This document shows, piece by piece, positions 1-563 of a stretch of 64,000 nt of DNA. Origin of the DNA: Campylobacter sp. US33a. Its GTDB lineage: Bacteria > Campylobacterota > Campylobacteria > Campylobacterales > Campylobacteraceae. The position numbers were made by a program, and so were the translations under genes. Where the stretch lies: contig NZ_RYYL01000003.1 in the NCBI RefSeq assembly GCF_004378855.1, forward strand, positions 1 to 64,000, read 5' to 3'. The notes below the pieces were generated by a model. It was not told the DNA's origin. It saw nothing but the letters and a program-made list of their open reading frames with translations, and ran no database searches. Within the stretch, counting starts at the first letter, position 1. Each line of letters starts with the position of its first letter.

Positions 1-75
1 TTTTGCGATTTTATCATTCATACGATTAAAACAACGCAAAAATGTTGATTTCCCACACCCTGAAGCACCGATTAA
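1..75 (-). pseudogene. 5'-truncated fragment of phosphate ABC transporter ATPase (pstB)
   Basis: The minus strand from about base 75 down to the window edge reads P-L-I-G-A-S-G-C-G-K-S-T-F-L-R-C-F-N-R-M-N, the Walker A region typical of PstB, the cytoplasmic ATPase of high-affinity phosphate uptake. The same frame meets TAA at 88-90 only a few codons upstream, no start codon lies between, and the first about 30 residues of a PstB protein are absent. The piece abuts a response-regulator remnant on the other strand. I read it as a recombination leftover; whether the rest of pstB continues beyond base 1 cannot be seen. Confidence 0.65.
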
Positions 76-81
76 TGGGTG

Positions 82-313
82 ATTTTCTTAAGCACTAAAA
101 CCTTGCAAAAAGATATTTTAGATGGCTTTAAAGAAGGTTGTGATGATTATATTTGCAAGCCTTTTAATTTCAATGAGTTATTATTTAGAATCAAAGCAAT
201 AACCAAAAGAACCAATACAAAAAAAGGAAATTTTAATTTTTGAGAACTTTGTTTTAAATACAGATGAAAGAATTTTAAAATTTAAAGATGAAAAAATAAT
301 TTTTAAGATTTAA
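82..313 (+). pseudogene. Remnant of an OmpR-family response regulator
   Basis: From 82 the frame reads I-F-L-S-T-K-T, then D-I-L-D-G-F-K-E-G-C-D-D-Y-I-C-K-P-F and E-L-L-F-R-I-K-A-I. This is the C-terminal half of a CheY-like receiver domain, including the conserved KPF lysine, and it ends at TGA 241-243. A shifted frame continues with E-N-F-V-L-N-T-D-E-R-I-L-K-F-K, the usual first strand of an OmpR winged helix, to TAA 311-313. The phospho-acceptor half and the recognition helix are missing. Known for the family: two-component transcription regulators. Inferred: a dead gene; which regulator it came from is not decidable. Confidence 0.7.
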
Positions 314-342
314 ACATAAAACAATGAACTTTCGAAGTCTTC

Positions 343-399
343 ACCCTGCTATTTATGAAGACTTTATGACTTTAAGGACAAACTAAGCAGGGTTTTTTT
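343..399 (+). terminator. Rho-independent terminator-like hairpin, possibly the 3' end of a small RNA
   Basis: ACCCTGCT (343-350) is perfectly complementary to AGCAGGGT (386-393) and is followed by a T run to 399, so it would end plus-strand transcription. No gene on the plus strand leads into it, only the dead regulator, so the RNA ending here could be a small non-coding RNA. A competing hairpin, AAGTCTTCA (335-343) with TGAAGACTT (356-364), overlaps its left arm. Confidence 0.55.
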
Positions 400-550
400 A
401 AAATTAAATTAGCTTTTTTTAAAAATCAGTTCTTATCTAGCTTTTAATCGCTACGATAAGGACTACTAAAAGTATCAAAATGATAATTACTTCGTTCATC
501 TCAACCTCCTTTCAACTTTATTCAAAGTCTTCAGTCGGTTGTCCTTAAAG
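356..550. repeat. Inverted repeat pairs flanking the small-peptide gene
   Basis: CTTTAAGGACAA at 370-381 recurs as its exact reverse complement at 539-550, and TGAAGACTTT at 356-365 recurs as its reverse complement at 524-533. The right-hand copies lie in the leader of the small peptide at 437-499 and the left-hand copies beyond its stop codon. A minus-strand RNA covering both could therefore pair its leader with its 3' region. The two pairings cross and could not both form as one nested helix. Confidence 0.6.
437..499 (-). CDS. 20-residue hydrophobic membrane peptide (candidate type I toxin)
   Basis: The peptide reads MNEVIIILILLVVLIVAIKS: a short charged start, an almost uninterrupted run of I/L/V long enough to span a membrane, and a Lys-Ser end. 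AAAGGAGG (505-512) sits 5 nt before the ATG, one of the strongest ribosome sites in the window, and TATAAT (558-563, minus) would give a leader of about 50 nt. The leader contains CAACC, which could pair with GGUUG overlapping the Shine-Dalgarno site, plus the repeats described separately. Size, hydrophobicity and folded leader suit small type I toxins or regulatory membrane peptides. I do not recognise the sequence and the function is inferred. Confidence 0.5.
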   Translation of the reverse strand: MNEVIIILILLVVLIVAIKS

Positions 551-557
551 CTTGGAA

Positions 558-563
558 ATTATA
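558..563 (-). promoter_or_regulatory. -10 box for the small hydrophobic peptide
   Basis: A perfect TATAAT on the minus strand preceded by a T-rich stretch, as in Campylobacter sigma-70 promoters. The expected start is near 550, giving a leader that begins with the CTTTAAGGACAA repeat. Confidence 0.5.

What the first reader, a model, noticed from the sequence alone, without database searches (positions are those of the whole stretch)
430..563. Candidate type I toxin-like locus: 20-aa hydrophobic peptide with a perfect ribosome site and a foldable leader
A 20-residue I/L/V-rich peptide has AAAGGAGG 5 nt before ATG and TATAAT upstream, so it looks built for expression. The leader contains CAACC, which could pair with GGUUG over the Shine-Dalgarno, and elements whose exact complements lie past the stop codon. 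On the opposite strand GATAAT (482-487) could start an antisense RNA that would cover the Shine-Dalgarno and leader. This matches the logic of type I toxin-antitoxin genes, but the peptide is not one I recognise.
Basis: partly seen in the sequence, partly recalled or inferred. Interest (0 to 1): 0.72.

Follow-up and report, generated by a model that had tools for sequence, protein, structure and literature searches.

The report
Campylobacter membrane-peptide toxin gene family
A gene for a 20-residue greasy peptide, wrapped in an mRNA whose two ends are built to pair with each other, is one copy of a dispersed, unannotated family in Campylobacter and some Helicobacter that looks like a self-poisoning (type I toxin) gene of a kind already known in Helicobacter pylori.

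Summary
It is not chance. The locus belongs to a multicopy family: four copies in its own genome, more on Campylobacter plasmids, prophages and in tandem arrays, and one in Helicobacter pullorum. Copies encode 20-22-residue hydrophobic peptides under purifying selection. The mRNA 5' end (CUUUAAGGACAA) pairs with the 3' UTR (UUGUCCUUAAAG), with compensatory changes between lineages; the sense TATAAT lies a fixed 7-9 nt before it. A second group with the same RNA layout but a different, amphipathic 24-27-residue peptide was found with the same model. This is the logic of H. pylori aapA/IsoA, but neither peptide nor RNA shows detectable homology to AapA, and nothing matches on pVir (cjrA). The weak point is the antisense half: its promoter is not conserved beyond what codon choice gives, and no RNA or toxicity data exist. 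Best reading: a chromosomal copy of a mobile type I toxin gene, new member of a known kind, probably sighted before (Arnion 2017, from memory).

The parts
437..499 (-). 20-codon ORF, MNEVIIILILLVVLIVAIKS, predicted single membrane helix with conserved Glu3, Leu11, Leu14, Lys19
   Evidence: 23 distinct homologous ORFs of exactly 20 codons; pN/pS 0.43 in frame, 0.65 and 0.97 in the other frames; Leu11, Leu14 and Lys19 invariant
505..512 (-). Shine-Dalgarno AAAGGAGG
   Evidence: AAGGAGG invariant in the 23-sequence alignment
558..563 (-). -10 box TATAAT of the peptide mRNA; predicted start about 551-552
   Evidence: perfect TATAAT in 67% of members against 9% of shuffles, at a constant 7-9 nt from the pairing strand
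539..550 (-). 5' strand of the long-distance interaction, CUUUAAGGACAA
370..381 (-). 3' strand of the long-distance interaction, UUGUCCUUAAAG
   Evidence: cells paired 88%, covariation score 0.170 against 0.097 shuffled and at most 0.096 when slid
524..532 (-). leader element GAAGACUUU, repeated in the terminal hairpin
   Evidence: changes together with its partner (GGAGGCUUU/AAGCCUUC in the C. lari group, UUGAGGCUUU/AAAGCCUCAA in L015)
357..365 (-). AAAGUCUUC, can pair with the leader element or with the downstream hairpin arm (mutually exclusive)
335..343 (-). UGAAGACUU, 3' arm of the terminal hairpin of the mRNA
387..392 (-). CCCUGC, 5' arm of a conserved hairpin that encloses the 3' pairing strand
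   Evidence: nearly invariant; compensatory variants ACCUUGC/GCAAGGU (L011), CCCCUGC/GCAGGGG (L024)
344..349 (-). GCAGGG, 3' arm of that hairpin
537..541 (-). CAACC, candidate anti-Shine-Dalgarno (pairs with GGUUG 506-502)
   Evidence: pairing present in the MFE fold; occlusion not above the shuffled control in this copy, but above it across the family (SD unpaired 0.29 against 0.44)
330..551 (-). predicted full-length mRNA (ends inferred)
   Evidence: full-length model match at 330-555, 219.5 bits (the window copy was one of the 23 sequences of the model)
482..487 (+). GATAAT, candidate -10 of an antisense RNA starting near 494 and covering the start codon, SD and leader (unproven)
   Evidence: one search confirms the sequence; one search finds no conservation beyond codon usage

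Best explanation
The locus is a chromosomal copy of a dispersed type I-toxin-like gene. RNA polymerase starts at about 551 on the minus strand and makes an mRNA of about 220 nt (inferred from the conserved -10 box). As the 3' UTR emerges, its UUGUCCUUAAAG pairs with the extreme 5' end CUUUAAGGACAA. This closes the transcript into a stable form that is translated poorly, and local leader hairpins (CAACC/GGUUG and variants) occlude the Shine-Dalgarno while the RNA is being made. Trimming of the 3' end would open the 5' leader. The strong AAAGGAGG would then drive synthesis of a 20-residue transmembrane peptide with one lysine near its C-terminus, which inserts in the inner membrane and stops growth. 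An antisense RNA from within the ORF, started near 494 on the plus strand, would normally cover SD and leader and lead to RNase III decay. Shown: gene family, peptide selection, covarying 5'-3' pairing, sense promoter position, mobile distribution. Inferred: 3' trimming, antisense RNA, membrane insertion, toxicity.
For: Multicopy family: 4 copies in the own genome, 16 of 49 genus genomes by BLAST and 21 of 49 by covariance model, plasmids of C. coli, C. jejuni, C. lari, C. peloridis and C. armoricus with no annotated gene under any match, 16 IMG/VR contigs (one copy lies beside a phage major head gene), H. pullorum (fold z = -8.5). Peptide 20-22 aa in nearly all, pN/pS 0.43. 5'-3' pairing: longest Watson-Crick run 10.4 within a locus, 8.1 between loci, 7.2 shuffled; covariation score above all 500 shuffles and all slides, and again in the second peptide group (0.333 against 0.152). 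TATAAT fixed 7-9 nt upstream. One copy sits about 0.5 kb from HicA/HicB and near a RelE-like gene on pSKBC25; tandem arrays. The same RNA logic is shown by experiment for aapA/IsoA (PMC6733600; PMC8167048).
Against: No transcript, ribosome or growth data. The antisense promoter is not conserved beyond chance, and the + strand RNA 494-580 does not fold unusually (z = -1.3). Removing the 3' UTR hardly changes predicted SD accessibility (0.29 to 0.33), so the claim that the long-distance pairing itself hides the SD is not supported by thermodynamic folding. The peptide resembles no family by sequence.
Confidence: 0.72

Rival explanations
1. A small membrane protein with a housekeeping or regulatory role (modulator of a transporter or kinase), translationally controlled by mRNA folding, without toxicity and without an antisense RNA.
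For: Conserved peptide under selection; no evidence yet of a conserved antisense promoter; many small hydrophobic bacterial proteins are regulators (general knowledge).
Against: Presence is patchy (21 of 49 genomes), copy number is high, and contexts are plasmids, prophages and tandem arrays, which fits an addictive or selfish gene better than a fixed partner. Two unlike peptides sit on the same RNA layout.
Confidence: 0.17
2. A mobile repeat (MITE-like or REP-like element) whose inverted repeats mimic an RNA structure; the ORF is incidental.
For: Dispersed copies with inverted repeats; the window begins at a contig break beside gene debris.
Against: Exactly 20 codons kept across 23 distinct ORFs with lower non-synonymous change, invariant SD, and a sense promoter at a fixed distance. 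The stretch between stop codon and 3' pairing strand varies freely while ORF and pairing strands do not.
Confidence: 0.05
3. A degenerate or silent type I locus whose RNA now serves as a regulatory sRNA, as suggested for H. pylori NikS/IsoB.
For: Such conversion has been suggested in H. pylori and is discussed for C. jejuni CJnc180/190 (PMC8687705).
Against: In this copy ORF, SD, promoter and pairing are all intact, and the one change against the same-species copy keeps the pair (C-G to U-G).
Confidence: 0.06

Closest known systems
aapA/IsoA type I toxin-antitoxin family of Helicobacter pylori
   Same: Multicopy, short hydrophobic peptide with basic residue(s) near the C-terminus, mRNA whose 5' and 3' ends pair, candidate anti-SD hairpins in the leader, candidate antisense RNA overlapping the leader (PMC6733600, PMC8322730, PMC8309996).
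   Different: Peptide is 20 aa without the polar N-terminal part and shares no detectable sequence with AapA1 (30 aa). AapA1 matches only one genus among 399 genomes of the order. Models R1 and R2 do not match AapA loci above chance. Antisense RNA not shown here.
cjrA type I antitoxin of C. jejuni plasmid pVir
   Same: The type I antitoxin found in a Campylobacter database survey (PMC7826846).
   Different: Neither R1 nor R2 finds anything on pVir above chance.
Other membrane type I toxins (TisB, IbsC, LdrD, Fst, SprA1)
   Same: Short peptide with a single hydrophobic helix, RNA-level control (PMC8309996).
   Different: No family match in Pfam, NCBIfam or PADLOC; different hosts and RNA layouts (general knowledge).
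hok/Sok
   Same: mRNA locked by pairing of its 5' and 3' ends (Gultyaev 1997, as cited in PMC6733600).
   Different: No coupled overlapping reading frame noted here; peptide much shorter and unrelated (general knowledge).

Membership tests
Type I toxin-antitoxin system (general) | Small, mostly hydrophobic toxin ORF with strong ribosome site | tested here: met
   20 aa, mean hydropathy 2.58, AAAGGAGG, purifying selection
Type I toxin-antitoxin system (general) | Antisense RNA that pairs with the toxin mRNA | tested here: inconclusive
   GATAAT is present but antisense -10 sites are no more common than synonymous codon choice gives; no RNA data
Type I toxin-antitoxin system (general) | Expression of the peptide is toxic and the RNA prevents it | not testable with these tools
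   needs expression experiments
aapA/IsoA family | 5'-3' long-distance interaction of the full-length mRNA | tested here: met
   12 bp in this copy, covarying across the family
aapA/IsoA family | SD hidden by upstream or downstream anti-SD hairpins | tested here: inconclusive
   family mean unpaired SD 0.29 against 0.44 with shuffled leaders (P = 7e-4), but not in the window copy; no clear effect of the 3' UTR
aapA/IsoA family | Peptide homologous to AapA | tested here: not met
   the AapA1 search finds no match in the own genome; all 11 matching genomes belong to one other genus (g47)
aapA/IsoA family | RNA homologous to aapA mRNA | tested here: not met
   no match of R1 or R2 to 11 AapA loci above chance level (best 19.5 bits, E = 0.012)
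cjrA (pVir) | Sequence or structure match on pVir | tested here: not met
   no R1 match; R2 best E = 0.58

The most novel reading that the evidence does not exclude
Campylobacterales carry an exchangeable RNA chassis (5'-3' locking pair, SD hairpin, enclosing CCYUGC/GCARGG hairpin, fixed promoter) on which unlike membrane peptides have been mounted: a 20-residue transmembrane one (this locus) and a 24-27-residue amphipathic one. The two are held in about ten copies in this genome, so that control evolves separately from the poison.
Probability: 0.4. Interest if true: 0.62.

Novelty: new member of a known kind. Interest (0 to 1): 0.48.

Why it matters
A survey of 111 Campylobacter isolates reported type II systems almost only (PMC7826846), yet this genome alone holds about ten unannotated candidate type I loci. 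If they are toxic and RNA-controlled, they bear on plasmid and prophage upkeep and on dormant or coccoid forms in a common food-borne genus, as AapA1 does in H. pylori. The covariance models made here allow systematic annotation, and the pattern of two peptides on one chassis makes it testable how mRNA folding and toxin identity evolve apart.

Tried and rejected
Rfam gathering search of the window: nothing. tRNA/tmRNA: none. Pfam, NCBIfam and PADLOC on the peptides: nothing above a cut-off. Phage records: no DNA match. cjrA/pVir: no match. AapA homology: no match. Peptide strings in the literature: none. A first alignment of own-genome copies had one copy in the wrong orientation and was redone. 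RNAduplex energies of leader against 3' UTR did not separate own from foreign pairs well because of competing 3' pairings; the Watson-Crick run test did. The idea that 3' truncation frees the SD was computed and not supported by equilibrium folding. Antisense promoter conservation was tested and not supported. The Arnion 2017 paper is not held.

Full report
What is there. On the minus strand the window has TATAAT (563-558), a leader, AAAGGAGG (512-505), ATG at 499 and a 20-codon ORF ending at 437 that reads MNEVIIILILLVVLIVAIKS. It lies between a gene that looks like rpoN (614-1858) and gene debris at the left end. The SD-plus-start arrangement AAGGAGG-N3-9-start occurs only here in the 64 kb, both strands. 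The leader CTTTAAGGACAA (550-539) is exactly complementary to TTGTCCTTAAAG (381-370) past the stop. GAAGACTTT (532-524) is complementary to AAAGTCTTC (365-357), which can also pair with TGAAGACTT (343-335). The predicted RNA folds with the 5' and 3' ends paired (-57.2 kcal/mol, z = -3.3).

It is a family. The own genome has three further copies, one of them cut by a contig end. The same-species genome G029 has at least six, with one tandem pair. BLAST finds 16 of 49 genus genomes. A covariance model (R1, 225 positions, 12 pairs) finds 21 of 49, with up to nine or ten matches in one genome (some of them to the second group below) and an array of five. Plasmids of C. coli, C. jejuni, C. lari, C. 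peloridis and C. armoricus carry it, and no annotated gene lies under any match. On C. jejuni pSKBC25 it lies about 0.5 kb from hicA/hicB and near a RelE-like gene. C. armoricus pCA639-1 has four copies. Sixteen IMG/VR contigs carry a nearly identical version; in L082 it lies beside a phage major head protein gene. Helicobacter pullorum has MAEMILVLIVLLLLILAVKC with a 12-bp end-to-end pairing and a fold at z = -8.5, and three genomes of one genus in another family of the order match R1.

The peptide is selected. Twenty-three distinct ORFs have exactly 20 codons, with Leu11, Leu14 and Lys19 invariant and Glu3 in 22. The raw pN/pS is 0.43 in frame and 0.65 and 0.97 in the other two frames. No Pfam, NCBIfam or PADLOC family fits above its cut-off, and none of six peptide strings occurs in the paper library.

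The RNA is selected. Longest Watson-Crick runs between a leader and its own 3' UTR average 10.4, against 8.1 for 3' UTRs of other members and 7.2 for shuffled ones. Different lineages keep the pairing with different sequences: CTTTAAGGACAA (window), ATTTTAAGACT (L011), GATTTAAGGTTA (H. pullorum), AATGTTTAAGT (L116). On the alignment A2 the 12 pairs give 88% paired cells and a covariation score of 0.170, against 0.097 shuffled and at most 0.096 when slid. The hairpin CCCTGC/GCAGGG around the 3' strand also shows compensatory variants (ACCTTGC/GCAAGGT in L011, CCCCTGC/GCAGGGG in L024). TATAAT is perfect in 67% of members against 9% of shuffles, at a constant 7-9 nt before the pairing strand, so the mRNA should start with that strand. 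The one difference between the window copy and its same-species counterpart in the aligned 281 bases (99.6% identity) lies in this pair and keeps it (C-G to U-G).

A second peptide on the same chassis. R1 also found weaker, full-length matches (roughly 30-56 bits) coding for 24-27-residue amphipathic peptides such as MLDRFLNIVLKLLKIVKELIKIINQL. Their own alignment shows the same layout: GTTTAAGTGGTTAA with TTAACC-TAT-ACTTAAAC, 91% paired cells, covariation 0.333 against 0.152 shuffled, and at most 0.100 when slid. A model made only from them (R2) finds 26 of 49 genus genomes (a few of these through group-1 loci) and six group-2 loci in the own genome. It also matches the window locus over its whole length (35.3 bits, E = 1e-4 in 153 kb). 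The two groups therefore share an RNA layout although the peptides look unlike. Common descent of the layout is my inference. The second helix of group 2 is less certain (80% of cells paired).

What does not hold. The antisense half rests on GATAAT at 482-487. Across 24 peptides, -10-like sites on the antisense strand are no more frequent than random synonymous codons give (15 against 14.6 expected). The + strand RNA 494-580 does not fold unusually (z = -1.3). By equilibrium folding the SD is hardly more hidden in the full mRNA than in one lacking the 3' UTR (0.29 against 0.33 unpaired). What hides it, in the family average, is the leader (0.29 against 0.44 with shuffled leaders, P = 7e-4), and not in the window copy (0.50 against 0.39). 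So the long pairing may stabilise the RNA or lock kinetics rather than mask the SD directly.

Comparison with the known. In H. pylori aapA1/IsoA1 and aapA3/IsoA3, the full-length mRNA is inert through a 5'-3' interaction, 3' trimming activates it, transient anti-SD hairpins guard nascent RNA, and an antisense RNA with RNase III removes the active form (PMC6733600; PMC8322730; PMC8167048). AapA1 sits in the inner membrane and turns cells coccoid, and its C-terminal Lys-Arg is needed for toxicity (PMC8309996). The present family works by the same visible logic. It is not shown to be a member: AapA1 finds no homologue in the own genome, and all its matches lie in one other genus; R1 and R2 do not recognise AapA loci. 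PMC6733600 states that the folding is conserved at loci in other related species. From memory, the abstract of Arnion et al. 2017 says that a search for homologous mRNA structures found similar systems in many Helicobacter and Campylobacter genomes. That paper is not held, so I cannot tell whether this family is on their list, and I grade the novelty accordingly. The Campylobacter type I antitoxin found in a database survey is cjrA of pVir (PMC7826846), and pVir has no match here.

Verdict. A real, selected, mobile gene family with the RNA anatomy of a type I toxin. The toxin role is likely, the antisense RNA plausible but unproven, and the kind is known.

Noticed in passing
own genome G000: C1:161-373, C1:505-722, C1:7108-7323, C61:99805-100020, C61:114523-114737, C2:3-216 (L147, L148, L152): Six loci with the same end-paired mRNA layout but 24-27-residue amphipathic peptides (e.g. 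MLDRFLNIVLKLLKIVKELIKIINQL), partly in tandem; 26 of 49 genus genomes match the model.
   Followed up: partly
window 1-310: Gene debris at the contig start: an ABC ATPase fragment resembling PstB on the minus strand and a response-regulator fragment (KTLQKDILDGFKEGCDDYICKPFNFNELLFRIKAITKRTN) on the plus strand; the same pieces lie there in G029 (L033 3130-4011).
   Followed up: no
window 344-399 (+): Read on the + strand, CCCTGC...GCAGGGTTTTTTT looks like a terminator for transcripts coming from the left; the T run is not conserved in other copies.
   Followed up: no
L133 (G010:C1:643500-645800): Five head-to-tail copies of the family within 1.6 kb, three of them with the peptide MNEIYFLIILLIVLILVIKN.
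   Followed up: no
L153-L154 (AapA1 loci), 3' UTR: The 13-mer AGTTTATCCTTAA occurs in the 3' UTR of two H. pylori-group aapA1 loci and, identically, in C. lari-group members of this family; chance or remote kinship was not resolved.
   Followed up: no
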